From positions 1 through 64,000 of the forward strand of contig JAAZBM010000005.1 of NCBI GenBank assembly GCA_012513815.1: a stretch of 64,000 nucleotides of DNA. The letters are read 5' to 3'. Origin of the DNA: Candidatus Sumerlaeota bacterium (GTDB taxonomy: Bacteria > Sumerlaeota > Sumerlaeia > Sumerlaeales > Sumerlaeaceae). Position numbers and translations under genes: made by a program. Positions 7,042 through 36,575 of this stretch are shown here, piece after piece; positions within the stretch are counted from its first letter, which is position 1; each line of letters begins with the position of its first letter. The notes under the pieces were generated by a model. The model worked only from the letters and a program-made list of their open reading frames with translations. It had not been told where the DNA came from and ran no database searches.

Positions 7042-9051
7042 ATGACAAAATATACAAGTTTACTCGTTGCGGCAGCATTCGCCATCACGGCAGCAGCCAC
7101 CGCAGCAGACACAAAGACTGTCCTCTGTGACTTTGAGAGCACAGTAGACTACAGTGGCAACGCCGCAACTTGGGCATCCCCGGCAATACAAGACACAGTC
7201 GTCCTTGCCAAACAAGCCGGCATATCCGGCAACGGCATCAAAGTTGACTACACCTATCAGGGTGACTCAGCATGCACATACGCCGGATTCCATTCATGGG
7301 ATTATCCGGTCGCGACATTTGCCACATCCGTTGATATGGCAGAGGCAGACGGCTTCTCCGTTTGGATTAAGAACGAAACAGTCAGCCCATTCAGCGTTAT
7401 GTTCTACGTCAAGGATGCGGCTGGCGAAGTCATGCGCATCATGTACTCCGGCCTGCTTCCAACCGCCCATACGGACTGGACAGAGGTCATGATTCCTCTG
7501 GCGCAATCCCCAACGGATGCCACCGGTGACTTCGGACACGGCCTCCAGACCTCCATCTGGAAAAACTCCGGGCGCGCCATCGACCTTTCGAAAATCGCCG
7601 AATTCGGTATCACCGTTTACGACCGTGAAGGCGTCCAAACCGACGGTTCCTTCTCGTTCGAACTCGACGACTTCTCATTCTTTGTAGGCACCGACAACGA
7701 ACAGGTCATCAAGAAGTTTGACTTTGCGACCGACAGCGCGACAGATTGGTCCTCCTTTGATGGCGGAGTTGTCTCTCAAGGCACCGGCACCATGAACCTC
7801 ACAACCACCCTTGCAACATGGGTTCCCAAAGGCGCCGAAATCGAATTGCCTGAAACAATCGACTGCTCCAATCTGGCCTATGCCAAGTTTGACGTCGAAG
7901 GCGATGCCATCATGGCCGCCGTCAATCCGACTCTCGACCTGCACCTCATCGACGTGAACGACAAAGTCATGGCCTCCTTGGCTTACAACGTACTCAAAGC
8001 CGCCGATGGTGGTGTTTCCTTTGCGCCCACGCACACAGCGGGATGCCAGGATCTTACTTATTATGGCCTCAGCTGCTGGCGCTTCGGCACATATAGCGGC
8101 GATTATAATGCCAACAAAGACTTCGACGCGACCCAAGTCAAGAAAATCAGAATTGGCTACGAACCTCAACAGGTGGCAGACCCGGACGTCGTCGGACAAG
8201 AAGCCACCATCAAGATTAAGAGCATGACACTGGCCGCCACCGCCAAGATACCGGTTGGACCGCAACCTGAAGGCGCGAAAACAATCGATTGCGTCTGGAC
8301 AGACCAGCCAATCGCCATGGACGGAACCGGGAGCGATGCCGCTTGGAACAAGGCCGCTTGGTCAACCGCAGCGTTCACACAACGCGGCTCAACCACAGAA
8401 GTCCCCGCTGACTTCCAGGGCAAATTCAAAACAATGTGGGATGAGACATCCATGTACTTCCTGCTTGAATTCGTCACAGGCGCCACCGATGGTAAGCACT
8501 ATGGCATCAACAACAACGCCAACCAGCTTGTCTCGGCCTACTACGACGGCACCAACTTCATGAACGAATTTGATATCTTCGTATCACCCGCAGGCAACAC
8601 ACAAGGCTCGAGCCATTACTATCAGATTATGCCTTACTTCGAAACAGACGCCACCGGACATCAGCCCACTGCTTCCAACAATGGCTTCTTCTTCGGTGCC
8701 ATCGATGCAGCAGGAAGCTGGGCCAACGTTACCTCCGCCAACATCGAAGTCAAAGCAAAAGAAGATTTGGGTGCCCAAAAAGTCACATTCGAAGTCAAAG
8801 TTCCTTATGCGGGCTTGAATGACGCAACAGCCAACGGTGGCGTTGCTCAAATGAGCAAACCCGCTGTCGGTGACACATGGTACGGCAACGTCTGCCACTG
8901 GGCCAACCAGTTTAGCGGCGACACGCCCAACACAGTGCTCGCGGTTTGGGGACAAGATCCTGCTGACCTCCAAGCATGGGGCAAAGCCTATCCCATGGGC
9001 TCCTTCAACTTCGTCTATGCTGCCGAAGTCGCAGACTGGGAACTTTTCTAA
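7042..9051 (+). CDS. Secreted multi-domain CBM9-like carbohydrate-binding protein with C-terminal DW tail
   Basis: The protein has 669 residues and a signal peptide (MTKYTSLLVAAAFAITAAAT, cleaved about residue 21). Two beta-rich jelly-roll-like regions follow: about 25-220, starting VLCDFES, and about 225-405, starting KKFDFATDSATDWSSFDGG. The C-terminal region (about 415-650) has the CBM9/DOMON-like pattern, with an I-A-M-D-G-T-G-S-D-A-A-W opening, then YFLLEF and YDGTNF. It ends EVADWELF, the tag shared with other exported proteins in the window. No catalytic motif is visible, so binding of plant or host glycans at the cell surface is the reasonable inference. It has its own promoter and a strong terminator. 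Confidence 0.75.
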   Translation: MTKYTSLLVAAAFAITAAATAADTKTVLCDFESTVDYSGNAATWASPAIQDTVVLAKQAGISGNGIKVDYTYQGDSACTYAGFHSWDYPVATFATSVDMAEADGFSVWIKNETVSPFSVMFYVKDAAGEVMRIMYSGLLPTAHTDWTEVMIPLAQSPTDATGDFGHGLQTSIWKNSGRAIDLSKIAEFGITVYDREGVQTDGSFSFELDDFSFFVGTDNEQVIKKFDFATDSATDWSSFDGGVVSQGTGTMNLTTTLATWVPKGAEIELPETIDCSNLAYAKFDVEGDAIMAAVNPTLDLHLIDVNDKVMASLAYNVLKAADGGVSFAPTHTAGCQDLTYYGLSCWRFGTYSGDYNANKDFDATQVKKIRIGYEPQQVADPDVVGQEATIKIKSMTLAATAKIPVGPQPEGAKTIDCVWTDQPIAMDGTGSDAAWNKAAWSTAAFTQRGSTTEVPADFQGKFKTMWDETSMYFLLEFVTGATDGKHYGINNNANQLVSAYYDGTNFMNEFDIFVSPAGNTQGSSHYYQIMPYFETDATGHQPTASNNGFFFGAIDAAGSWANVTSANIEVKAKEDLGAQKVTFEVKVPYAGLNDATANGGVAQMSKPAVGDTWYGNVCHWANQFSGDTPNTVLAVWGQDPADLQAWGKAYPMGSFNFVYAAEVADWELF

Positions 9052-9087
9052 AAACAACTTTCTTCTAACGAAGAAATTGACAAAAAA

Positions 9088-9117
9088 AACGCTCCGGGCA
9101 AAACCGGGGCGTTTTTT
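9088..9117 (+). terminator. Rho-independent terminator of the gene at 7042-9051
   Basis: The arm AACGCTCCGG (9088-9097) pairs with CCGGGGCGTT (9104-9113) with one G-T pair. The loop is 6 bases and a six-T run begins at 9112. Its 3' arm is also the beginning of the direct repeat that flanks the restriction island. Only this 3' half reappears at 12694. Confidence 0.85.
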
Positions 9118-9222
9118 AGTTATTATGTTTTTTTTTCTTGACTTCTTCAGAAACTACGGCTATACAAAATCATATAAAGGATATATGCGCATGAACAAAC
9201 TTAATATTATCGCATTGGCAGC
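9101..9222 (+). repeat. Left direct repeat of the restriction island (truncated promoter/start copy)
   Basis: These 122 bases repeat 12694-12841 almost perfectly. They run from the 3' half of the terminator through the promoter, ribosome-binding site and first 13 codons of the secreted gene now at 12804. The left copy lacks 27 bases just after the first half of the -10 box, so TATAAT became TATACA, and its reading frame ends soon after the junction. It is therefore a dead remnant, and the repeat marks the insertion site. Confidence 0.85.
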
Positions 9223-9250
9223 GTCCGTCCGTTTCGCTTTTGGGCAGACA

Positions 9251-9322
9251 AGGCGGCGGTTGCCGCCGATTTCCATTTAAGGGAATGGCACTTGCTATTA
9301 TGGGGAACGACGAATAGCAAGC
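9251..9322. repeat. Three consecutive hairpins at the left end of the island
   Basis: GGCGGC/GCCGCC pairs at 9252-9267 around GGTT. CCATT/AATGG pairs over roughly 9273-9288. CTTGCTATT/AATAGCAAG pairs at 9291-9299 with 9313-9321 as a perfect 9 bp repeat. The region lies between the island junction and the end of mcrC. It has no T-tract and no reading frame, so it could be a recombination end or the 3' UTR of the mcrBC mRNA. Confidence 0.4.
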
Positions 9323-9350
9323 AAATCCAGTGAGTACCCAAACCGGAAAT

Positions 9351-10727
9351 TCATACTTGGCAAGTAGGGCACGGCGGTACCCACTCGTGCGCTTGCTTGT
9401 TGGGGAACACGCTTATGAATTCCTGTTCCTGAGTCTTTATTTTTGTGGTAAATTCCGAGTAATTCTGTGCATCTACGGGAATTTTCAAGCCGTGTTTGGT
9501 AACGGTGATATCATCACATGGCATGACATTTCCCTCATAGGTCGAACCACGATTCATTCGTAATTTCTGGTCATCAACACCGGATGCCTCTGGATAAAGG
9601 TAATAGCCAGCCTTAGCATCAAAACGGAACATATAAGCCAGCACCTGCAAATAGTCCCGATTTCCGATGTTATTGATAGGTTTGTACTTGGCGTCTGCAA
9701 TAATCCGCATCTCGCTATTACGACTGATGAAATCGGGGTAGATAAGTCCAACATTCCCATCAAACAGTCTCTGCGCACCCAGTCTCTGCGCACCCTTGCT
9801 GCCTTTATTCATTGGGTGATAGAACATATCCTCTATCAGTGAATTGATGTATTCCTCCCACAACCATGCGCCGTCAAACAGGATGCCGTATATCTGCCTC
9901 GATCCCGAACCGATTTGGTGTTTCTGATGCCGAAGGATCAAAAGGCACAGCCTCTGTAAAGCAAGATATTCTCTAAAATAAGCGCGGCGGACAGTATTCT
10001 TTTTATTCTGTTCAATGATTTTCTGCCTATCATATGGCTCATATGTCGGAGTCGCATCTATAACGAGTTTTATTTCGTCTTTCACTTTGATAAGGAGGCT
10101 GTTCCCATAAGGTTTTCTTTTAATAAATTCAATGGTATGCCTTACCAGTTCCATCAGGCTATTGTCATAGGAAAACTCTCGCTGATTATAGGCAACATCT
10201 CCGGCAAAGGGTGTATTCTTCTCAATGTGCCGTGCAACATCTATTGTTCCTTTTACATTTCCGTCATTGTATCTGCGGCGGATGTACTTTTTGAATAAGC
10301 CCTTGCGCATAGCTGCTTTCAGGTAATGTGGAAACAGGAACAGCAGAAAATTGAACAGCCGATTGTCCTGATTGGCATCAGTTTGCAAATCAACAATATT
10401 AGGAAAGTCCAGAACTTTGTCCAAAAGATACCGGAAAAAGTAATCCTCACCCTTTCCGCAAAAACGGGATTCGATAACGAGCCGCTCATCACCGCAGCCC
10501 AGAAAGCCCATTACATTCCTTGTACAATAGGTGTCATTTACGCTTTTGAGAATCATCTGATCCTGCGTAATGTCCTCTGCATTTTTTAAGATTTCCGGGA
10601 ACACAAACACACCTTCACGCTCAAGCTGCTCCAAGGTTTTATCTGCTATTTTGCCTGTGAGGGTTCTGATTTGAGAAAATGACTCTTTTTTCTGTTGGGC
10701 GTTATCCTTGATCCTGAGTAGCTTCAT
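9351..10727 (-). CDS. mcrC: McrC-like nuclease subunit of an McrBC restriction system
   Basis: A protein of about 458 residues of the McrC family, the endonuclease partner of McrB in restriction of modified (methylated) DNA. The PD-(D/E)xK core is visible as LIYPDFISR followed by IIADAKYKP (about residues 335-355), giving the Asp and the D-A-K pair of the active site. The start MKLLRIKDNA at 10727 is chosen because AGAGGT lies 7 bases upstream. The longer frame, which adds 15 residues, lacks such a site. The gene overlaps the end of mcrB by 26 bases. The C-terminus has an odd CPTC pair. Confidence 0.88.
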   Translation of the reverse strand: MKLLRIKDNAQQKKESFSQIRTLTGKIADKTLEQLEREGVFVFPEILKNAEDITQDQMILKSVNDTYCTRNVMGFLGCGDERLVIESRFCGKGEDYFFRYLLDKVLDFPNIVDLQTDANQDNRLFNFLLFLFPHYLKAAMRKGLFKKYIRRRYNDGNVKGTIDVARHIEKNTPFAGDVAYNQREFSYDNSLMELVRHTIEFIKRKPYGNSLLIKVKDEIKLVIDATPTYEPYDRQKIIEQNKKNTVRRAYFREYLALQRLCLLILRHQKHQIGSGSRQIYGILFDGAWLWEEYINSLIEDMFYHPMNKGSKGAQRLGAQRLFDGNVGLIYPDFISRNSEMRIIADAKYKPINNIGNRDYLQVLAYMFRFDAKAGYYLYPEASGVDDQKLRMNRGSTYEGNVMPCDDITVTKHGLKIPVDAQNYSEFTTKIKTQEQEFISVFPNKQAHEWVPPCPTCQV

Positions 10728-12108
10728 GTACATCACCTCTGGACTGGTTCGGATAGCCGTATGCCTTCGCAAACCGCTTCATAATCTCTTCTTCATCTTT
10801 CATCCCCTGAATGTATTCTTGGAGGAGCGGTTGCAGATAATCGGTCCATAGCTGATCAAAGTCCAGTGTTTTCAGCTTGAGAAAGTAAGAAGCACCGATT
10901 TGATAATTCTTGTTCAAATCCTCAACTGCAGAAATTTCCTTATTAAGGGCAGCCATTCTTCTGATTGCCTCAGCCTCCAATTCCTCATTTTCCAGCAATG
11001 CCAGCATCTCAAGGCGCTCATCCGCCGGAAGCTCCACAAAACGGAATCGGCGACGCATAGCAAAATCAAAGCTATCCACAGAACGGTCAATATCGTTCAT
11101 AGTACCGATGATATAGACATTTTCAGGGATATAAAATTTTTCATCCGGGTTGGGGTGCAGATTGGAATACTGCGTAGAAATCTCACCAGATTTTCCACGA
11201 TAACCGGGGTCAATTGCAAAGAACAGTTCACCGAAAATCTTTGAAATCTCGCCGCGGTTGATTTCATCAATGATGAATATGTATTTTTTCAGTTCCTCCT
11301 GTTTTGTCCTTGCTTTTGAAGCCGTGATTTTCTTGGCTTTAATAGCTTCGTAGATGGGTAAGTCATAGGAGTACCCTTGTGAAGCAAAAGTTTTTCCAAA
11401 AAAGGTCGTAATGTCCTTTACTTTTGTAAACTCCTGTCCGGACTCCAGCATCCTTCTAACTTCATCCAGATTCAGAGCAAGCTTGTTGACAGATGCGTTT
11501 CCGGGAATGGAGACATTGATATGCCTGTCATCCACGCTGGTAATGGTAAATTCATTTTTATGTTTCGTCTTAAATGTGTCAACACCAAACTCAACGCTGG
11601 AGAAAAACTCCGTCATGGATTCTTGAACCATGATTTCCTTTTCCATTGTTTCTGGGGATTTTTGTGAATCCTCATAGTTCTTTCTGGCACGGGCGACAAA
11701 CTTCTTGAAAATGCCGTCCTGCAATTCAAAGCCCATCGTCCCATCGTCGTTGACCTTCGGTCTCAGTCCTTCCACAAAATCAGAGTAGTCATAACTCGGA
11801 TGGAACTGAACAAACTCCACCTGTTTTTTCAGCTCGTCAGTAAGACAACTATAGTTATCCTCATAACCATTGCTGATAATATCCGCAGCAATTTCTTTGG
11901 CGAGATAGGACTTTCCAGTGCCGGGTGCGCCTCTGAAGATCAGATTTTTGGATTCAATCAGCATAGAGGAGAAAGGATTCCGATACCCTTTGAACTGTTG
12001 GACAAGTTCTTCCTGAACAGCGGCCTCCGTTTCTGCCGCCGAGGTCTCTTTCTCATCTTTTTCTGCGGTAATGGTTAATTCGAACTTCTCCTGTTGCTTT
12101 GTCTCCAT
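10702..12108 (-). CDS. mcrB: McrB-like AAA+ GTPase/ATPase, open frame from an internal ATG
   Basis: The intact open frame is 468 residues and contains the motor of McrB. Walker A is GAPGTGKS (about residue 59), Walker B is IFIIDEINRGEISKIFGELF (about 275), and the McrB-type signature GTMNDIDRSVDSFDFAMRRRFRF (about 320) contains sensor 1 and the arginine finger. McrB forms hexamers that drive McrC. The normal N-terminal DNA-recognition head is encoded just upstream but out of frame, so this frame begins after it (METKQQEKF). If expressed from here the product would resemble the short McrB form of E. coli, which lacks the DNA-binding domain. Confidence 0.85.
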   Translation of the reverse strand: METKQQEKFELTITAEKDEKETSAAETEAAVQEELVQQFKGYRNPFSSMLIESKNLIFRGAPGTGKSYLAKEIAADIISNGYEDNYSCLTDELKKQVEFVQFHPSYDYSDFVEGLRPKVNDDGTMGFELQDGIFKKFVARARKNYEDSQKSPETMEKEIMVQESMTEFFSSVEFGVDTFKTKHKNEFTITSVDDRHINVSIPGNASVNKLALNLDEVRRMLESGQEFTKVKDITTFFGKTFASQGYSYDLPIYEAIKAKKITASKARTKQEELKKYIFIIDEINRGEISKIFGELFFAIDPGYRGKSGEISTQYSNLHPNPDEKFYIPENVYIIGTMNDIDRSVDSFDFAMRRRFRFVELPADERLEMLALLENEELEAEAIRRMAALNKEISAVEDLNKNYQIGASYFLKLKTLDFDQLWTDYLQPLLQEYIQGMKDEEEIMKRFAKAYGYPNQSRGDVHEATQDQG

Positions 12109-12343
12109 AATGAAACCCTGTCCTTCCAGAAAACTTTTTGCTTCTACGGCATTAGAGCCGTCCGTGGAAATATTCCGTTTGCCAAATGGTCAGCAACGGC
12201 TACTACATACTCGGTGGATACTTTTTTCCATCCTCAGAAACAAATACATATTTTACGCTCATATTATGTTCGGGAACTCCGTTCTCGTTGGTAAATTTCA
12301 GGGCATCAATGATATCCTGTTCCTTCAGCTTTGGTATAGCCAT
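12109..12343 (-). pseudogene. Frameshifted N-terminal head of mcrB
   Basis: Reading from an ATG at 12343, preceded by a good GAGGAGG site, gives MAIPKLKEQDIIDALKFTNE and continues to KKYPP. A frame change near 12212 is needed to continue YVVAVADHLANG. Another near 12170-12175 is needed to continue ISTDGSNAVEAKSFLEGQGF, which runs into the open mcrB frame at 12108. Together these make a continuous N-terminal head of the type found on Gram-positive McrB-like proteins. Two small indels have therefore broken the gene, unless they are sequencing errors. Confidence 0.75.
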
Positions 12344-12360
12344 ACTGCACCTCCTCAATT

Positions 12361-12402
12361 GTGTGTACACACATTATAGCATACAGCCTAGATATTTTTC
12401 AA
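12361..12402 (-). promoter_or_regulatory. mcrBC promoter with a palindrome at the start site
   Basis: On the minus strand TTGAAA (12402-12397) and TATAAT (12378-12373) are 18 bases apart, with TG near the -10. The perfect 12 bp palindrome GTGTGTACACAC (12361-12372) directly follows the -10 box and covers the expected start of transcription, which is a typical place for a repressor site. The ribosome-binding site GAGGAGG and the ATG at 12343 follow. Confidence 0.65.
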
Positions 12403-12584
12403 TAGGTCCGCCGAAAACTATCGCATTAAAGTGTAACTTCTCTGTGAAGCCAAGATACTGAATAATGACTTCATTAGTGCTTTCAAATCAATTCATACGG
12501 GATATGAAGTCGGGTATTATCCATTCTTGAACAACACACCACAAAGCAGAAAATGAGAAATTTTCGACCCTTAAACGCACAAAA

Positions 12585-12618
12585 CAGACGACACCTAACC
12601 GAAGTTGAATGTCGTCTG
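12585..12618. repeat. Inverted repeat in the right flank of the island
   Basis: CAGACGACA (12585-12593) pairs with TGTCGTCTG (12610-12618) across a 16-base loop. It lies in 350 bases (12344-12693) that hold the mcrB promoter but no gene I can support. The function is unknown; it might be a terminator remnant or an element end. Confidence 0.4.
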
Positions 12619-12693
12619 CTTGTTTCCAATCCTGTTTGACAGATGCCGTAATCCGTAATTTTTGATGGATTACTGTCTTATGGACACTCTGCT

Positions 12694-12841
12694 AAACCGG
12701 GGCGTTTTTTAGTTATTATGTTTTTTTTCTTGACTTCTTCAGAAATAACGGCTATAATTAATTAAGTGATAGGGAAACCATATCAAAATCATATAAAGGA
12801 TATATGCGCATGAACAAACTTAATATTATCGCATTGGCAGC
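12694..12841 (+). repeat. Right direct repeat of the restriction island (intact copy)
   Basis: This is the 148-base intact partner of 9101-9222. It starts in the middle of the upstream gene's terminator (AAACCGGGGCG) and ends in codon 13 of the gene at 12804. It keeps the full -10 box and the 27 bases missing from the left copy. Confidence 0.85.
12730..12758 (+). promoter_or_regulatory. Sigma70-type promoter of the secreted protein at 12804
   Basis: TTGACT (12730-12735) and TATAAT (12753-12758) are separated by exactly 17 bases. The left repeat copy carries the same -35 box but a deleted -10 box, which supports these as the working elements. Confidence 0.75.
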
Positions 12842-14228
12842 TTGCGCCTTCGCGCTTGCCTCCGTTGCGGACGCAATTCCATTCGCGTCAAAAGTAGCGG
12901 CGACGAATAAAACCGTCGCGACAAACGCAAATATTGACGTAACCTACTTCCTCAATGAGGCTGCGCAAGACGTGGCCGTCAATCTTCTTGACGCAAGCGA
13001 CAATGTCGCCGCAACCGCCGTTGGAACAACCGCAGCGGGCGTCAATAGCGCGACCGTCAAAGCCCCTGCTACTGCTGGTGCATACAGACTTCAGATTTCT
13101 GTCACCGGCGCCGCCGCCGAGCAAAAAGTCATCAACGCCTTTTACTCGGAATACTGGGATGAAGGAGCCAACCCCATTGCGGACGCCTGCCCCGATGCGA
13201 CACGCTCCATCTATAACGGTTTCTCGCCCCGTGGCGCTCTGGCCGTGACGGATCAAGACCTTGACAACTTCGGACGCATCATGATGATTTCGGCCTTGGG
13301 CAGCGACCACTGTTGGGCCATGAACACTGACGCCGCTCTTGGATGGTGGTTCCCGACCGAAACTCAAAAAGGTAAAGACACAGCCAATGTCAAATCCGCT
13401 TCAGCGCCTGCCAGTTCCATGGTTATGAGTGCAGGTTGGATGCCCGACGGTCAAACATCACTCCAATACTCCGGACAAAATGGCAATACCAACCCTAGCG
13501 CAGGTTACGCGTTCCAAGTTGGTGGAACAGATGATACGGATATCGTCGACAAAACAAACGGTATGCTGAGTGGACTCTATGCCCGCGGCGCCACAGTATT
13601 TGACTATGGTGACAAACGCTACCTCCTTCAGGCAGCCGGTGGTAATTTCTATCGCGCCGAAATGGACAAGACAACCAACTTGCCCGATGAGGCAACCCGC
13701 ATTACGTTGTTGACCGGTGCCACCTCGGCGAAAAATGCCTTTACCTATGGTGACCATGTCTATTGCGTCGACAGAACAGGCAAAAAGGTTTATCGTTTCA
13801 CGACTGAACAACTCGCCAATGCTACGGAAGGAATGGCTCTTCCCACTGCGGAATGGATTGCCGACTGCGCCGCTGGCGAATCGATTACTTACGTCTGCTT
13901 CGGACCGCAAGGCGAAGTATACGCAATGAACAGAGGTAGCTCCTCCACAGATATTCTTTATCTCGGAAACGACAGCGAAGCCACCAGTTCCAAAGTCGTC
14001 GACTTAGCGGCCGACACCGTTGCCTCGCTTGCGTTCACGGTTAACGCAACCTATGGTTGCTTCGCCACTGACCCCGCCGGAAACTTCATCATCGGCGACA
14101 ATGGCAAGGAAATTCTTGTCGCGCTTGCCCCCGCCAACACCGGCGGCACATTCGCGACCAAAGCGCCTCTCTCACAGAACATCACTGTTGAATCGGGCGC
14201 TGGTGTTGCGGACTGGACACTGCAGTAA
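12804..14228 (+). CDS. Secreted Ig-like plus beta-propeller-like protein with C-terminal DW tail
   Basis: The protein has 474 residues and a signal peptide (NKLNIIALAACAFALASVADA). Next comes an Ig/FlgD-like strand-rich module of about 80 residues (VAATNKTVATNANIDVTYF to GAYRLQISVTG). A long repeat-rich body follows with blades resembling a beta-propeller (GDKRYLLQAAGG, GDHVYCVDRTG, GPQGEVYAMNRG). It ends GAGVADWTLQ, a variant of the exported-protein tag. No enzyme motif is seen. ATG codons occur at 12804 and 12810; the second has better spacing from AAAGGA at 12795-12800. Before the island inserted, the gene directly followed the one at 7042. Confidence 0.75.
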   Translation: MRMNKLNIIALAACAFALASVADAIPFASKVAATNKTVATNANIDVTYFLNEAAQDVAVNLLDASDNVAATAVGTTAAGVNSATVKAPATAGAYRLQISVTGAAAEQKVINAFYSEYWDEGANPIADACPDATRSIYNGFSPRGALAVTDQDLDNFGRIMMISALGSDHCWAMNTDAALGWWFPTETQKGKDTANVKSASAPASSMVMSAGWMPDGQTSLQYSGQNGNTNPSAGYAFQVGGTDDTDIVDKTNGMLSGLYARGATVFDYGDKRYLLQAAGGNFYRAEMDKTTNLPDEATRITLLTGATSAKNAFTYGDHVYCVDRTGKKVYRFTTEQLANATEGMALPTAEWIADCAAGESITYVCFGPQGEVYAMNRGSSSTDILYLGNDSEATSSKVVDLAADTVASLAFTVNATYGCFATDPAGNFIIGDNGKEILVALAPANTGGTFATKAPLSQNITVESGAGVADWTLQ

Positions 14229-23616: not shown

Positions 23617-25263
23617 CTAATTGTCAAATTCTTTGACGCCGTTTTTGCCGCTGATTTTGATGCTATACATGGCTTGGTCGGCCTTCTCAATCAGAATTTC
23701 GTAGGATGTTCCGTTCTCGGGGAAGCGCGTAAGTCCTATACTGCATTTGATTTGCAGGGTCTCGCCTTCACGAACAATCAGTTCGGAGGACAGCCGTTTC
23801 GTCAGATTGCCGATGAAGGTATCCAAGTTGGTGATGACGTTTTGGTCGCTGATGCACAGCACAAATTCATCGCCCCCGAAGCGGCAGCCGTATCCGTGAC
23901 CATAAATCGCGTCGAGCAGAATCTCGCCGATAAATCGGATAATGCGGTCGCCAAAGGCGTGGCCGTACTGCGAATTGAAGTTCTTGAAGTCGTCAATATC
24001 GATGAACAGGAACACGAGGTAAGACTTGGAGGGGGACTTTCCGGCTTCGAACTTGTTGATGAGTTCACGCACGGCCGGTTCAAAGAAGGTGCGGCTATAT
24101 AGCTTCGTCATCGGGTCGTACTTCGCGCGCTTGAGTAGCTGGGTATTCTTTTCTTGCAGCGCATCAAGCAACGTGTTGAAGGCATTAATCATAAGGTCGA
24201 TTTCATCGGTACGAGTGACAACCGAGATCGGGCTCATGAGTCCCTTGCTTTTGCTATCTTCGATTTGCGAAATCACCTTGTGCATTTTTCGGACGAAATA
24301 TCCCGCGGAGCGGGTTGCGACATAGAGGAAGAGACCGGCAACAATGACCATAAAACCGAACAGGATAACCGCTATTCGATAAATTGGGAAAACGATCGTG
24401 TTATAATTCTCGGTTTCGACAACCTTCCAACCGGTACTCGGAATGACAGAGTAATAAGCGATTCGTTTAGTCTTTGTCCGCAAGTTCATGAACGTGAAAA
24501 CGCCCTTTGGATGCGTCGGAAAATTGACTTTCGCCCATTCCTCTGCAAAGTCATTCATCACGCCCACTTGCGACAAGTTGTGCCGGCGCTGGGGGTTCAC
24601 GGTGTTCACAAAGGAATTGTTGTTGTCATAGATTACGGTGAACTTGTTGGGCTCTTTGTAGTCTTCATCAGTCAGCGCAATGGCCTTGATGAATTCTTTC
24701 ATGGAGAGGAAGAATGTGATATACCCGATGACAGTGTCATTATCTTTCACAGGCACGACGCAGATATGAACCGTCTTGCCGTTATATAAACTGCTGTTGG
24801 AGATAATTTCAGAGAAGCAGAACCCGTGTTCGCGCGACTTCTTCATCAAATCCGCCGAGATTGGAAGATCGTTTTTGGTTTCTTCGTTACTCGACGAAAA
24901 AAGGAGATTTCCTTCCTTGTCATTGAGCGTAATGAAAACGTACGACGGTTTGATGTCGGTAGTACTCTCAAATAGAATCTGAATAGGATTCATAGATTCC
25001 TGCGTAATCGTTGAGGTTTTGTCATACTCGTTGAGCGCCTTTCGAACAGCAAAAACACGAGAGAAAACAAGAGCCGTTTCCTTGATGGTGTTGATGTTTC
25101 TCTCGGCAATAGTGGCCTTACGCTCGGCATTAGACGCGAGTTGCTCAAAGACAGAATCACGCAAGTACATGTAGCCTAACGCAATGAAGGTTCCGCTGAT
25201 AATGACGAGCGGAAGGATGGCTGCGATGATGAGCAAAAATGCCAGTTGTTTACGAATTTTCAT
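23617..25263 (-). CDS. Membrane diguanylate cyclase with extracytoplasmic sensor domain
   Basis: A 548-residue protein with an N-terminal membrane helix (LAFLLIIAAILPLVIISGTFI) and a large extracytoplasmic region resembling a double Cache sensor (about 35-285). A second helix (about 288-312) and a HAMP-like linker follow, then a GGDEF domain (about 375-545). The active-site loop is RFGGDEF, preceded by the metal-binding IDIDDFKNFN, so it should make cyclic di-GMP. No RxxD inhibitory site precedes the loop. It lies 84 bases downstream of a paralogue with an almost identical C-terminal domain. The two are probably cotranscribed and sense different signals. Confidence 0.88.
   Translation of the reverse strand: MKIRKQLAFLLIIAAILPLVIISGTFIALGYMYLRDSVFEQLASNAERKATIAERNINTIKETALVFSRVFAVRKALNEYDKTSTITQESMNPIQILFESTTDIKPSYVFITLNDKEGNLLFSSSNEETKNDLPISADLMKKSREHGFCFSEIISNSSLYNGKTVHICVVPVKDNDTVIGYITFFLSMKEFIKAIALTDEDYKEPNKFTVIYDNNNSFVNTVNPQRRHNLSQVGVMNDFAEEWAKVNFPTHPKGVFTFMNLRTKTKRIAYYSVIPSTGWKVVETENYNTIVFPIYRIAVILFGFMVIVAGLFLYVATRSAGYFVRKMHKVISQIEDSKSKGLMSPISVVTRTDEIDLMINAFNTLLDALQEKNTQLLKRAKYDPMTKLYSRTFFEPAVRELINKFEAGKSPSKSYLVFLFIDIDDFKNFNSQYGHAFGDRIIRFIGEILLDAIYGHGYGCRFGGDEFVLCISDQNVITNLDTFIGNLTKRLSSELIVREGETLQIKCSIGLTRFPENGTSYEILIEKADQAMYSIKISGKNGVKEFDN
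23636..24020 (-). repeat. GGDEF-coding segment nearly identical to 25372-25755
   Basis: The 3' ends of the two cyclase genes match at roughly 95 percent of bases over about 380 positions. The sensor-coding parts have diverged to weak protein similarity. Sharp loss of similarity at the 5' side suggests recent gene conversion. Confidence 0.8.
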
Positions 25264-25347: not shown

Positions 25348-27003
25348 TCATGACTCTTCATCAGACTCCTTCATGCCGTTTTTGCTGTTGATTTTGATGT
25401 TATATATGGCTTGGTCGGCCTTCTCAATCAGAATTTCGTAGGATGTTCCGTTCTCGGGGAAGCGCGTTAGTCCTATACTGCATTTGATTTGTAGGGTCTC
25501 GCCTTCACGAACAATCAGTTCGGAGGACAGCCGTTTCGTCAGATTGTCGATGAAGGTATCCAAGTTGGTGATGACATTTTGGTCGCTGATGCACAGCACA
25601 AATTCATCGCCCCCGAAGCGGCAGCCGTAGCCGTGACCATAAATCGCGTCGAGCAAAATCCCACCGATAAATCGGATGATGCGATCGCCAAAGTCGTGGC
25701 CGTACTGCGAATTGAAGTTCTTGAAGTCATCAATGTCGACAAACAGGAAAACGAGATACGATTTCTTCGGGCCTTTTTCGGGGTCATACTGTTTAATAAG
25801 CCGCCGAACCGTTTCCTCGAACGAGGTGCGATTATAGAGTTTCGTCAACTGGTCATACTTTGCCCGCGCGACAAGTTCGGTATTCTGTTTGTCGAACTTA
25901 TCCAACATCTTGTTGAAAGCCGTGATAAGCTTGTCGACTTCATGAGTTTTCGTATTCATATCGATACGCTGCAACGGCTTGAGGGTCTCGATTTGTTGAA
26001 TGAGTTTCTTGAGCCTGTTACTGAAGACGTTCGCGTAGCGGTTGGCAATGAGGAAGAACAGCACCGCGACAACAAGAATGAAAATGAATATGTACACCGC
26101 ATTGATGACAGCTGACATAACGATTTGACGCTCGGATGTCGAGCTAACGATTTTCCATTCCGTCCCCTCGATACAACAGTAGAACGCCAATCGATGTTCG
26201 CCGGTAGTATAATTATAGAAAGTGAAAAAACCATTGGGCTTCTCGTGGAAGTCGATTTTCTCCCAAGTATCTTTAAAGTCCACCAAGCCGACCTCATTCT
26301 TCAAATCCATGAGGTAGTGAGGCGGGTTCGAGTTGATGAAGCGGTTATACTGGTCATAAACAGCAATGAATGTTTTGTTGTCCCGCGGTGAATCTGCCAT
26401 CGTAATCACATCCATAAGTGATTCAGCCGACAGTAGGAACGCGAGATATCCCAAGGCTTTTCTGTTTTCCAAAACCGGCTTGACACAATAGTACATCCGT
26501 TTGTCACGCGTATACTGATTGTCCGTAATAATCTCAGAAAAGAGCACGCCCTTACTCTCGGCAAGTTTCATTTCTTCCGCGATAGACAGATTCGCTTTTT
26601 GCTCGATGATTGTTCCCTCGTATAATGGGTTGTTCGACACTAGGCAAGTTCCGCTAGTGTCGAACACAGAAACAAGAGTGACCGGCGATTTGACATCCTT
26701 GGTGTAGCAAAACAGATTCCTGATTTTGGTGATTCTGTCGCTCGATATTGTTGTGGTTTTGTCGTACTCGCTGAGGCTGTCCATGATGATTGGCATATGC
26801 GCGAAAATATCCGCCATCTCGCTGATATCAGCGATAAGATGATTGGCGATACCTGCCTTGAGCGAGACATTCGCCTCGATGTTCTTGTAAATCGTCGCGC
26901 GATGATTCTGATAGTCTCTCGTAATCACAACCGTACCAATGACTATCAGCGGCAAAAGTGCCGCGATAAGCATCAGCCAAGTCAACTGTTTACGAAATTC
27001 CAT
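25348..27003 (-). CDS. Membrane diguanylate cyclase, paralogue of the downstream gene
   Basis: A 551-residue protein with the same architecture as the neighbour: N-terminal helix (LTWLMLIAALLPLIVIGTVVI), Cache-type extracytoplasmic sensor (about 35-285), second helix, linker and GGDEF domain (active loop RFGGDEF, metal loop VDIDDFKNFN). The sensor shares only scattered identity with the neighbour, while the last 170 residues are almost the same. The visible loop is intact, so cyclase activity is expected, and no RxxD inhibitory site is present. It is the first gene of the pair, with an upstream region of about 180 bases ending in the divergent terminator at 27138. Confidence 0.88.
   Translation of the reverse strand: MEFRKQLTWLMLIAALLPLIVIGTVVITRDYQNHRATIYKNIEANVSLKAGIANHLIADISEMADIFAHMPIIMDSLSEYDKTTTISSDRITKIRNLFCYTKDVKSPVTLVSVFDTSGTCLVSNNPLYEGTIIEQKANLSIAEEMKLAESKGVLFSEIITDNQYTRDKRMYYCVKPVLENRKALGYLAFLLSAESLMDVITMADSPRDNKTFIAVYDQYNRFINSNPPHYLMDLKNEVGLVDFKDTWEKIDFHEKPNGFFTFYNYTTGEHRLAFYCCIEGTEWKIVSSTSERQIVMSAVINAVYIFIFILVVAVLFFLIANRYANVFSNRLKKLIQQIETLKPLQRIDMNTKTHEVDKLITAFNKMLDKFDKQNTELVARAKYDQLTKLYNRTSFEETVRRLIKQYDPEKGPKKSYLVFLFVDIDDFKNFNSQYGHDFGDRIIRFIGGILLDAIYGHGYGCRFGGDEFVLCISDQNVITNLDTFIDNLTKRLSSELIVREGETLQIKCSIGLTRFPENGTSYEILIEKADQAIYNIKINSKNGMKESDEES
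25372..25755 (-). repeat. GGDEF-coding segment nearly identical to 23636-24020
   Basis: This is the partner of the repeat in the downstream cyclase gene. Differences are few and mostly silent, in contrast to the diverged sensor-coding parts. Confidence 0.8.
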
Positions 27004-29249: not shown

Positions 29250-32200
29250 TCAAACTTCGGTAGCCGCTTCGCGGAACTGCCTGACGATGTCACGAACAGT
29301 CGAGCTGTCCTCATCGACAAAATCGATTCTCATTCTGCGAATTCCGGCGGCAACCATAGCGGGAACATTCGCCAACATGGACTTAGGTTCACTAGCGTAA
29401 ACAATATTGCGGCAAGCGTCATCTGTTTTGACAACGTGGTCGACGCCTTTGCGGTCGCGGAGCGAGATATTCTTGAACTCGCACTGTCTGCCACATTCGG
29501 GGAACTTCGTTGCTTCGTTCGGCGCGGTGTGTTTGCAGTAGAGGCAATGCTCCGTATAGAACATCGGAATTCGCTGATAGACAACCGGCTCGAACCACGC
29601 GGGCACACTGTTTTCGAGCAATGCGCAAATGTTTTCGATTGCGAGTTCGGGCGAGAAAGCCATCCGCTCGAAACCGGCTTTGCGCATGAGCGCCGCCGTG
29701 AGGTCGTTGGCGATATTCATCGAGAAGTCCGCCGTCATTGGAACGGGGCAATTGCTCTGCTGAAGAATCTGCCATTGCGCCGGACCACGAACGAGCAAGG
29801 CATCCGGGTACGAATTGAGTAGCGTCCGCACATAGTGCGTCTCGCCGGGTTTGATTGCGCGGATCGTGGCCGGGGCAAACCGCGGGCCGTCCTCGCCAAT
29901 CATCTCGCGAACCTGAACATACTGACGCGGGTCTTCGAGTTCAACATAAATCGTGTCGATGTTTTCGAGAAGTTTCACCGCTTCGATTTGCTCGATTGTA
30001 CGGCAAAGAACGGAAATTTTTGTTTCGCTGGCCGGAACAACTTCCTTGCCAAACTCCTCCGCGAATTCCGTCTTGATTTCCTCACGCATCTGCGCAAGCG
30101 CCATCTCATCAACGGGTCGATTTGTGCCTTTCTCTCTTCTCTTTTCGAGCAGCGCTTCGACAGCGCTCCGTCTGATGTTATTCAGTCGGCTGAGCGGCAC
30201 CATCATGTTCTCGTCGATGTTCGCTTCGAGGCGGCGCAGTCTGAACGGGGTGTTGCCCATTCTCCCGATTTGAACCTCGAGTGTCTCCTGCGTTAATGGT
30301 CTGTCATTCGCCCATTCCGCGTCTTCCGTATCCTCGACCGTCACTTCGTTGCCGAAACTATCGGTCATGGTCATCTTGAGTTTATCGCCGACTTTGCCTT
30401 CGACTTCCGCCACGACCGGTCGCCGATAGAGGAATTCCGCGTTCTTGTAGGTCGCGTCGAGCATCTGTTCGAGTTCGACATCGCTCGTCTTCCAAACTCT
30501 GTCGCCACGGTTCACTCGCTCCGTAACAAGGGCGTCGTTGCCGAACGACAACATGAATCTGAGGGGCGCTTTTTCTGTCGGCGCGACCGAATCAAACTTT
30601 TGTCCACCGCGTTCGATGGTGTAGACACGTCCGCCTTCTTCCTGACTTTCGGCGCGATTGCCACATTCAAAAACAACGCCGTCGCCGGTGCGCAACGGTG
30701 CGCAAAGCTGAACTTCGACCATGCCGGTCTTCGTCACGAACACAACTTCACCGATAAGCATACCGTGATTCTTCGGTGTCTTTCCGTCGACAAGAGTCTG
30801 ATGATTGGTGCCGTTGAGATGTCCGGTGGAAAGCCCACGGCTGAAAGACATTTCGAGTTTGCGTTTGATTTCAGGTGTCATCACCGGGCGCGAGGGTCTC
30901 GCCTTCGCGTGAGGTGGCATGGCTTGGTCGATGCCATCGCGATACGACGAAATCACCGCCGCGACATATCTCGCGTTTTTCAATCTGCCTTCGATTTTCA
31001 GTGCAGCAACTCCCGCGCTAATCATATCGCCGATAAGCGGGAAAGCGCAAAGGTCGTTGGGCGACAACGGGAAGCGAACGAGGTTCGCGTCGCGGATGGG
31101 TTCTCCGTCAACGCAAAGGGTGTAGGGCAAACGGCACGGCTGCGCGCAAACACCGCGATTGGCGCTGCGGCCTCCGAGCGCTTCGCTGGCACAGCAAAGC
31201 CCACTGTAACTCATGCACAACGCTCCATGCGCGAACGCTTCAATTTCGATATTCGTTTCATCCGCAAGTCTCTTGAGTTCAGCGATGCTGAGTTCGCGAG
31301 GCGCGACGGCACGCGAGAAGGCAAGCCCCCATGTGTTGGTGGCGTGAACAGCCTCGGCGCATGTCAGCGCAGCTTGTGTGCTGGCGTGTCTGGGGAGTTC
31401 GGGCGCAAGTTTGGACATGAGCCACGCAAGTCCGAGGTCCTGGATCAGGACGGCATCGACACCGGCGTTGCTGCATGTCAGCACAAGTCCCGCCGCTTCG
31501 TCAAGCTCGTTCGTGAAAATGAGCGTGTTCAGCGTGACAAAACCGGAGAGACCTCTCTCGTGGAGAGTCCGCATAATTTCGGGGAGTTCTTCCGACGTGA
31601 AATTGTTTGCGCCACGCATCCGCGCGTTAAAATTGTTCAGACCAAAGTACACCGCATCCGCGCCGTTTTCGATAGCGGCCTTCAGCATCTCGCGGCTCCC
31701 GACAGGCGCGAGCAATTCCGGTTTGCGGCCGGCAACCTTAGGGATGGCAAGCTCGCTCAAATACTCGGAATTCTCGCCTCTGTCGGCAAAACGTTTTCTG
31801 TCGCCGAAAGAGCCACGGTCACGGTCACGGTCACCAAAGGATTTGCGTTCACGGTCGCGTTCGCCATACGGCTTACGCTCGCGGTCGCCAAAGGAACTTC
31901 TCTCACGGTCGCCATAAGGTCTGCGTTCGCGGTCACCAAAGGAGCCTCTGTCGCGGTCACGGTCACCATACGGTTTACGCTCACGGTCGCCGAATTCGCG
32001 CCGATGCGAGAAATCGCCGAAACCATATTCTTCTTCGTTTTCCTCGCGACGGGGGCGGCGTGGTTCCTGCACCGCGTTCGGGTCATACAGACCCTTGAAC
32101 ATGCGGCGATTGGGGGGACGGAAAAAACTGTCTTCGGGTTTCGTCTCGTAACGTGGGCGCTCATCGCGGTGGTCGCGGTCGCCATAAGATCTGCGCTCGC

Positions 32201-32810
32201 GGTCACGGTCACCATACGGCTTACGCTCGCGGTCACCGAACGGCTTGCGGTCTCTGTCGCCATAAGGTTTTCTATCGCGGTCGCCAAACGGTTTGCGGTC
32301 ACGATCTCCAAAAGACCTATGCTCTCTGTCGCCGAACGGTTTGCGATCTCTGTCGCCATAAGGCTTACGGTCACGGTCGCCGAAGGGCTTGCGCTCTCTA
32401 TCACCATAAGGCTTGCTGTCTCTGTCGCCGAACGGTTTGCGGTCTCGGTCACCGTAAGGTCTGCGCTCGCGATCACCAAAAGGTTTACGGTCTCTATCGC
32501 CGAACGGCTTGCGTTCTCTGTCGCCATAAGGTTTTCTATCGCGGTCACCGAATGGCTTCCGGTCACGGTCGCCATAGGGTTTACTGTCGCGCTCGCCATA
32601 AGGCTTTCTATCGCGGTCTCTGTCTCTATCTCCGAACGGTTTACGTTCTCTGTCGCCATAAGGTTTTCTATCGCGGTCACCGAATGGCTTCCGGTCACGG
32701 TCGCCATAGGGTTTCCGGTCACGATTCCCAAAAGGTTTCCGATCGCGATCTCCAAAAAGTTTGCGATCGCGGAATCCGCCTCCGCCTCTATTTCCGTTGT
32801 TATCTCTCAT
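29250..32810 (-). CDS. U32 peptidase family (RlhA/YdcP-like) protein with long Arg-Asp repeat tail
   Basis: The protein is 1186 residues. Residues about 350-1186 form a U32 family protein: PELLAPVGSREMLKAAIENGADAVYFG, AFAHGALCMSYSGLC and the Cys-rich RSANRGVCAQPCRLPY, then a DUF3656-like C-terminal region. The best-known relative, E. coli RlhA, hydroxylates C2501 of 23S rRNA, so RNA modification is a reasonable role. Residues 1-345 are low complexity, built from an 8-residue unit RDRKP(F/Y)GD. An acidic/aromatic interruption near residues 215-270 breaks the array. Such a tail is not part of ordinary U32 proteins and may bind RNA or drive condensation. A ribosome-binding site (AAGGAG) sits inside the end of queD, so the two genes are coupled. 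Confidence 0.82.
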   Translation of the reverse strand: MRDNNGNRGGGGFRDRKLFGDRDRKPFGNRDRKPYGDRDRKPFGDRDRKPYGDRERKPFGDRDRDRDRKPYGERDSKPYGDRDRKPFGDRDRKPYGDRERKPFGDRDRKPFGDRERRPYGDRDRKPFGDRDSKPYGDRERKPFGDRDRKPYGDRDRKPFGDREHRSFGDRDRKPFGDRDRKPYGDRDRKPFGDRERKPYGDRDRERRSYGDRDHRDERPRYETKPEDSFFRPPNRRMFKGLYDPNAVQEPRRPRREENEEEYGFGDFSHRREFGDRERKPYGDRDRDRGSFGDRERRPYGDRERSSFGDRERKPYGERDRERKSFGDRDRDRGSFGDRKRFADRGENSEYLSELAIPKVAGRKPELLAPVGSREMLKAAIENGADAVYFGLNNFNARMRGANNFTSEELPEIMRTLHERGLSGFVTLNTLIFTNELDEAAGLVLTCSNAGVDAVLIQDLGLAWLMSKLAPELPRHASTQAALTCAEAVHATNTWGLAFSRAVAPRELSIAELKRLADETNIEIEAFAHGALCMSYSGLCCASEALGGRSANRGVCAQPCRLPYTLCVDGEPIRDANLVRFPLSPNDLCAFPLIGDMISAGVAALKIEGRLKNARYVAAVISSYRDGIDQAMPPHAKARPSRPVMTPEIKRKLEMSFSRGLSTGHLNGTNHQTLVDGKTPKNHGMLIGEVVFVTKTGMVEVQLCAPLRTGDGVVFECGNRAESQEEGGRVYTIERGGQKFDSVAPTEKAPLRFMLSFGNDALVTERVNRGDRVWKTSDVELEQMLDATYKNAEFLYRRPVVAEVEGKVGDKLKMTMTDSFGNEVTVEDTEDAEWANDRPLTQETLEVQIGRMGNTPFRLRRLEANIDENMMVPLSRLNNIRRSAVEALLEKRREKGTNRPVDEMALAQMREEIKTEFAEEFGKEVVPASETKISVLCRTIEQIEAVKLLENIDTIYVELEDPRQYVQVREMIGEDGPRFAPATIRAIKPGETHYVRTLLNSYPDALLVRGPAQWQILQQSNCPVPMTADFSMNIANDLTAALMRKAGFERMAFSPELAIENICALLENSVPAWFEPVVYQRIPMFYTEHCLYCKHTAPNEATKFPECGRQCEFKNISLRDRKGVDHVVKTDDACRNIVYASEPKSMLANVPAMVAAGIRRMRIDFVDEDSSTVRDIVRQFREAATEV
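31795..32790 (-). repeat. Array of degenerate 24 bp repeats coding (RDRKP[F/Y]GD)n
   Basis: Roughly 1 kb of tandem 24-base units encodes the basic-acidic tail of the U32 protein. A non-repeat interval lies at about 31995-32155. Units differ at silent positions and at Phe/Tyr, Lys/Arg and Asp/Glu, which points to old expansion under protein-level selection. The repeat also keeps other frames open on both strands, which are not genes. Confidence 0.85.
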
Positions 32811-36499: not shown

Positions 36500-36575
36500 G
36501 GCCGATTAGCTCAATTGGTAGAGCAGCAGACTCTTAATCTGTTTGTTCTGGGTTCGAGTCCCAGATCGGTCACCA
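36500..36575 (+). tRNA. tRNA-Lys (anticodon CTT)
   Basis: The 76 bases fold as a complete cloverleaf. The acceptor stem GGCCGAT pairs with ATCGGTC with one G-T pair. The D arm is AGCTCAATTGGTAGAGC, the anticodon loop CTCTTAA reads CTT, and the T arm contains GGTTCGAGTCC. CCA is encoded. It reads AAG lysine codons. Confidence 0.95.

What the first reader, a model, noticed from the sequence alone, without database searches (positions are those of the whole stretch)
9101..12841. McrBC island bracketed by 122/148 bp direct repeats of a host promoter and gene start
Seen: mcrB and mcrC sit between two copies of the segment running from mid-terminator of one secreted gene to codon 13 of the next. 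The left copy has lost 27 bases including part of the -10 box. This is far longer than a transposon target duplication and there is no recombinase. Inference: acquisition through recombination with a circle or template carrying the local segment, followed by decay of the redundant copy.
Basis: partly seen in the sequence, partly recalled or inferred. Interest (0 to 1): 0.65.

Follow-up and report, generated by a model that had tools for sequence, protein, structure and literature searches.

The report
Foreign restriction-gene island between duplicated promoters
A decaying pair of foreign restriction genes (mcrBC) sits in the genome of an uncultured bacterium between two copies of the local promoter, the mark of an unusual but already described way in which restriction genes insert without any transposon enzyme.

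Summary
A 148-bp host segment (12694-12841: second half of a terminator, promoter, first 13 codons) recurs at 9101-9222, same orientation, bracketing a 3.47-kb insert of lower G+C with mcrB and mcrC. The copies match at 119 of 121 aligned positions apart from gaps of 27 and 1 nt. The genome has no third copy, only a diverged paralogue promoter that keeps the 27-nt stretch, so the left copy is the one that decayed. The insert resembles Bacillota mobile DNA; the host is a Sumerlaeota-like draft genome (66% complete). McrB is broken: two frameshifting deletions in its ScoMcrA-like head and a 450-nt in-frame deletion before its ATPase. The layout fits 'insertion with long target duplication', described for restriction genes since 2000; I place it there as a new, decaying member in an uncultured phylum with a type IV system. 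No same-genus genome is held, so the empty site could not be examined. Ku was found in 0 of 8 family genomes, which speaks against classical end joining.

The parts
9084..9117 (+). intrinsic terminator of the 7042 gene; the repeat begins in its loop
   Evidence: 14-bp stem, 6-nt loop, T tail
9101..9222 (+). left (decayed) copy of the host segment, 122 nt; lacks 27 nt including part of the -10 box
   Evidence: 119 of 121 aligned positions identical to the right copy
9223..12693 (.). foreign insert, 3471 bp, G+C 43.2%
   Evidence: composition; homologues
9350..9407 (-). conserved short element shared with plasmid pRGI00823 and a Bacillota-titled MAG beside a parA-like ORF; perhaps a remnant of a transfer origin (inference)
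   Evidence: 34/36 bp to HG796376.1; 45/52 bp to L127
9351..10772 (-). mcrC, 473 aa, with a 15-nt internal tandem duplication (9766-9795); its tail after about 9459 differs from its relatives and runs into the element above
   Evidence: PF10117 E 1.5e-51; 75% identity to L031; nucleotide match ends at 9459/9460
10702..12108 (-). mcrB remnant, 468 aa: AAA+ part only
   Evidence: PF07728; GAPGTGKS, IFIIDEINRGE and MNDIDRS conserved in the alignment
12055..12066 (-). junction of a 450-nt in-frame deletion in mcrB, GAAA at both edges in the relative
   Evidence: alignment with L031
12109..12343 (-). original 5' part of mcrB (ScoMcrA-like head), out of frame through 1-nt and 4-nt deletions near 12211 and 12173
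   Evidence: alignment with L031; head fold of the relative matches ScoMcrA 5zmm_B, Z 9.5
12373..12402 (-). mcrB promoter-like site TTGAAA-18-TATAAT, followed by the palindrome TGTGTGTACACACA
12541..12687 (-). donor-type intergenic stretch upstream of mcrB, up to 6 bp from the right repeat
   Evidence: 76% to MT836257.1
12694..12841 (+). right (intact) copy of the host segment, 148 nt
12730..12758 (+). promoter-like site of the 12804 gene, TTGACT-17-TATAAT
   Evidence: similar -10 and downstream stretch in the C7 paralogue
12804..14228 (+). host gene whose 5' end is duplicated; secreted-type protein of a host family
   Evidence: paralogue on C7, 44%

Best explanation
A piece of Bacillota-derived mobile DNA carrying mcrBC entered this Sumerlaeota-like cell and was joined into the chromosome between 7042 and 12804 in one illegitimate event that copied the 148-bp target to both sides (insertion with long target duplication). 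Shown: direct repeats around a foreign insert, flush within 6 bp on the right, no other copies in the genome, no recombinase gene seen in the insert. Inferred: the route. I think a break or fork switch in the terminator loop, with the two chromosome ends overlapping by 148 bp when the foreign fragment was bridged in by copying, is likelier than Ku-type end joining. The duplication left both neighbours whole (terminator on the left, promoter on the right), which may be why it survived. Afterwards the unneeded left promoter lost 27 nt and mcrB lost its N-terminal sensing part, so the island is now probably inert as a restriction system.
For: Repeat layout and polarity. Repeat absent elsewhere in the genome except a diverged paralogue promoter. 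Low G+C insert. McrB 81-83% identical to two IMG/VR contigs; three more McrC relatives; their neighbours include type I restriction genes, an IS30-like ORF and serine-recombinase ORFs (names read from the sequences, from recall). Donor-like similarity to within 6 bp of the right repeat. None of 5 relatives shows flanking direct repeats, 3 of 5 with enough flank on both sides, so the repeat is host target. Conserved McrB/McrC proteins with saturated silent sites against frameshifts and a deletion: recent decay. Ku in 0 of 8 family genomes; ComEC in 7 of 8, that is 7 of 7 relatives. Published class: long, variable target duplications of the order of 100 bp for restriction systems (passages).
Against: No empty allele could be shown: no same-genus genome among the 60 relatives searched, and the 5 named Sumerlaeota hits of the genome scan are only 56-59% identical in a neighbouring gene. 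The leftmost 127 bp of the insert (9223-9349) have no match, so the left edge is not proven flush. A larger integrated element that later shrank would look alike. The host draft is 66% complete and its own lack of Ku and ComEC says little.
Confidence: 0.6

Rival explanations
1. Single-crossover integration of a circle (or template from another strain) that already carried the 148-bp segment next to mcrBC: the first reader's view.
For: Gives exactly such direct repeats; ComEC present in 7 of 7 relatives, so uptake of relatives' DNA is conceivable.
Against: Needs a donor in which Bacillota-type mcrBC was already joined to this host promoter, so it only moves the first insertion elsewhere; relatives' mcrBC lack such repeats.
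Confidence: 0.15
2. Tandem duplication of the 12804 gene region came first; mcrBC then replaced the body of the first copy.
For: The gene has a paralogue, so the family does duplicate.
Against: Donor-like sequence reaches to 6 bp from the right repeat, so the insertion would have had to end by chance at the duplication joint; a search of the own genome with the island found no further host-like stretch inside it.
Confidence: 0.09
3. The repeats are the ends (attL/attR) of a shrunken integrative element whose recombinase was deleted.
For: The tail of mcrC carries an element shared with a plasmid and a parA-neighbouring site; one relative lies just behind serine-recombinase ORFs (L146).
Against: No recombinase seen in the insert; the repeat is host-type sequence with a paralogue and much longer than a usual crossover core (general knowledge).
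Confidence: 0.1
4. Assembly chimera of a metagenome: two strains joined at a 120-150-bp repeat.
For: The genome is a 66%-complete draft and repeats of this length can mislead short-read assembly (general knowledge).
Against: The two copies differ (27-nt gap, two substitutions), each joined to a different flank; a simple collapse would not invent them.
Confidence: 0.06

Closest known systems
Insertion with long target duplication of restriction-modification genes (Nobusato et al. 2000; Furuta et al. 2010; originals not seen, known here through papers that cite them)
   Same: Restriction genes without their own recombinase, bracketed by direct repeats of the order of 100 bp that are target sequence
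   Different: Here a type IV (McrBC) locus, in an uncultured phylum, inserted between genes with terminator and promoter preserved, and already decaying; the empty allele is not yet seen
ScoMcrA-headed McrBC loci of Bacillota-like mobile DNA (L030, L031, L144-L146)
   Same: McrB 81-83% identical to the two closest, McrC 75% to L031
   Different: The window copy lost the head frame and 150 residues before the ATPase, and its mcrC tail differs
Integrative elements with att direct repeats
   Same: Foreign cargo between direct repeats at a gene start
   Different: No integrase; repeat far longer than a usual core

Membership tests
Insertion with long target duplication | direct repeats of roughly 100 bp flanking the insert | tested here: met
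   122/148 nt, 119 of 121 aligned positions identical
Insertion with long target duplication | repeat is target (host) sequence, not part of the incoming unit | tested here: met
   host paralogue promoter carries the same layout; 0 of 5 relatives have flanking repeats, 3 of 5 with usable flanks
Insertion with long target duplication | insert holds restriction genes and no transposase or recombinase | tested here: met
   mcrB/mcrC only; of the other small ORFs only one was scanned against Pfam
Insertion with long target duplication | related genome with an empty site and one copy | not testable with these tools
Functional McrBC restriction system | McrC nuclease family | tested here: met
   PF10117, E 1.5e-51
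Functional McrBC restriction system | McrB AAA+ GTPase part | tested here: met
   profile A2, which includes the window protein, matches solved McrB chains such as 6hz4 (E 1.5e-39); MNDIDRS present (the motif's role is recalled)
Functional McrBC restriction system | intact N-terminal DNA-sensing part of McrB | tested here: not met
   frameshifts in the head and a 450-nt deletion; hence not filed as a working system
att-flanked integrative element | integrase or large serine recombinase in the element | tested here: not met
   no such ORF seen in 9223-12693

The most novel reading that the evidence does not exclude
Restriction genes carried by Bacillota mobile DNA can cross phyla and settle with a long target duplication through a general host repair route that needs neither recombinase nor Ku, and the hairpin loop of a terminator is a preferred breakpoint; such islands would be recognisable in genomes at large by duplicated terminator-promoter segments.
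Probability: 0.2. Interest if true: 0.55.

Novelty: new member of a known kind. Interest (0 to 1): 0.33.

Why it matters
In the papers I could search I saw no settled mechanism for insertion with long target duplication. A case far from Helicobacter, in a family without detected Ku, with a breakpoint inside a hairpin loop and with both neighbours kept whole, narrows the options and gives a signature that can be counted across genomes. For the organism itself it points to recent gene flow from Bacillota into Sumerlaeota and to a defence locus already on its way out.

Tried and rejected
Empty site: 60 relatives plus the own genome, the family (8 genomes) and the one genome-contig scan with a neighbouring phosphomannomutase-like gene gave no same-genus genome. 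Around the distant homologues of the 12804 gene in 11 relatives' loci (about 1.5 kb each side) none of 11 other window proteins matched, so no synteny was seen.

Donor: DNA of the insert against plasmids and phages, its edges apart, 113 and 98 genomes of two unnamed classes, and three pattern scans of viral contigs for the mcrC-tail element (no hits). No donor with both edges was found; only the mcrC-tail element and the upstream stretch matched elsewhere.

Dispersed element: rejected. RNA family in the island or repeat: nothing above gathering score. tRNA-associated att site: the only tRNA in the window is at 36500.

Fold of the lost McrB part: first model poor (pLDDT 51), second usable (pLDDT 78). 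Foldseek found no match at E <= 0.001; VIA-align gave ScoMcrA for residues 4-84 (Z 9.5) and Z 4.3 or less for the other rows, so the lost domain is not named.

Selection test: silent sites saturated (pS 0.78-0.84), so no dN/dS ratio.

Full report
Observation. The window is the first 64 kb of an 81.7-kb contig of a draft genome (1.88 Mb, 17 contigs, 66% complete). Between a CBM9-type secreted protein gene (7042-9051) and another secreted-type gene (12804-14228) lies a 3471-bp stretch with mcrC and mcrB on the minus strand. It is bracketed by direct repeats: 9101-9222 and 12694-12841. Of 121 aligned positions 119 are identical, with gaps of 27 and 1 nt. The edges are uncertain by a few bases.

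Which copy decayed. The genome has a paralogue of the 12804 gene on contig C7 (44% identity). Its promoter region aligns with the right copy across most of the 27-nt stretch missing from the left copy. So the left copy lost the 27 nt. The right copy holds a near-consensus promoter (TTGACT-17-TATAAT).

Where the breakpoints lie. The repeat starts in the loop of the terminator of the 7042 gene (14-bp stem, 6-nt loop). The left copy therefore keeps the whole terminator and the right copy a whole promoter, so both neighbours look intact. This may reflect selection rather than targeting; one case cannot tell.

The insert is foreign. Its G+C is 43.2% against 52.1% for the window. McrB is 81-83% identical to two IMG/VR contigs, and a McrC scan added three more relatives, 66-70% identical to the McrC of L031. 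Neighbours of these are type I restriction genes, an IS30-like ORF (L144) and serine-recombinase ORFs (L146); these names come from reading the sequences. The best plasmid relatives listed are Enterococcus and Streptococcus, 40-48%. The stretch upstream of mcrB matches a human-gut contig deposited as phage, to 12687. The end of mcrC is not like its relatives: similarity stops at about 9459, and a short element follows that matches a small plasmid, pRGI00823, at 34 of 36 bp and a Bacillota-titled genome (Pelotomaculum sp.) at 45 of 52 bp beside a parA-like ORF. I read it as a remnant of a plasmid or conjugative element, perhaps a transfer origin; that label is inference and was not tested. The leftmost 127 bp have no match.

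Host. In the genome-contig scan with a neighbouring gene the five best hits are named Sumerlaeota/BRC1 (56-59%), the next is of another phylum at 47%. The host is therefore probably a Sumerlaeota of a genus not held here.

State of the genes. McrB of the five IMG/VR relatives has about 680-695 residues. The window ORF has 468. Its start region (12343 downwards) is put out of frame by 1-nt and 4-nt deletions, and 450 nt are missing in frame just before the AAA+ part, with GAAA at both edges in the relative. The N-terminal region is conserved among five relatives (62-83% identity to L031). Its first 80 residues fold like the head of ScoMcrA (5zmm_B, Z 9.5, rmsd 1.9, 67 residues); the rest has no reliable match. 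ATPase motifs and McrC are open. Protein identity is high while silent sites are saturated, so the genes were under constraint until recently. The locus is probably inert as a restriction system.

How it got there. The repeats are host target: the own genome has only these copies and a paralogue promoter, and none of five relatives has flanking repeats, three of five having enough flank on both sides. The right edge is flush within 6 bp. That favours one event which inserted the fragment and duplicated the target. Ku was found in 0 of 8 family genomes (of 14 control genomes only Bacillus subtilis rang), so classical end joining is unlikely. ComEC was found in 7 of 8, missing only in the incomplete host draft, so DNA uptake is plausible. 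I favour a copying (template-switch) route starting near the terminator hairpin; this step is inference.

Known class. Restriction systems are reported to insert with long and variable target duplications of the order of 100 bp (PMC3874152, passages; PMC3031569, passages; PMC1643837, passages; PMC4978471, passages). The original papers (Nobusato 2000, Furuta 2010) I saw only as references; Furuta 2010 is not held. PMC2614495 (passages) reports that McrBC genes move between distant groups, sit near mobility genes and decay often, and lists Nobusato 2000 in its references. In my searches no paper with such an insertion of McrBC or in Sumerlaeota showed up in the listings; most subscription papers are not in the library.

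Verdict. It is a new, decaying member of a known kind.

Noticed in passing
ORF ends at 604(+), 9048(+), 14225(+), 18391(-), 27211(-): Five secreted-type ORFs end in the motif [VA]xDWx[LF]x; 0 in 100 mononucleotide shuffles. The C7 paralogue (L003) and one same-family genome (L040) show it too: perhaps a C-terminal tag of secreted proteins in this group.
   Followed up: partly
29250-32810(-): A U32-peptidase-like ORF (name from recall) carries a long N-terminal array of 8-residue repeats of the RKPYGDRD type, 24-bp units at about 31821-32780.
   Followed up: no
23617-25263(-) and 25348-27003(-): Two adjacent GGDEF-type genes share 381 bp at 95% while the rest is diverged: recent duplication or gene conversion.
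   Followed up: no
9766-9795: 15-nt perfect tandem duplication inside mcrC, adding GAQRL.
   Followed up: partly
12360-12373: Palindrome TGTGTGTACACACA at the mcrB -10 box; a similar GTGTGTACACAC stands in MT836257.1 downstream of the matching stretch: a possible shared operator.
   Followed up: no
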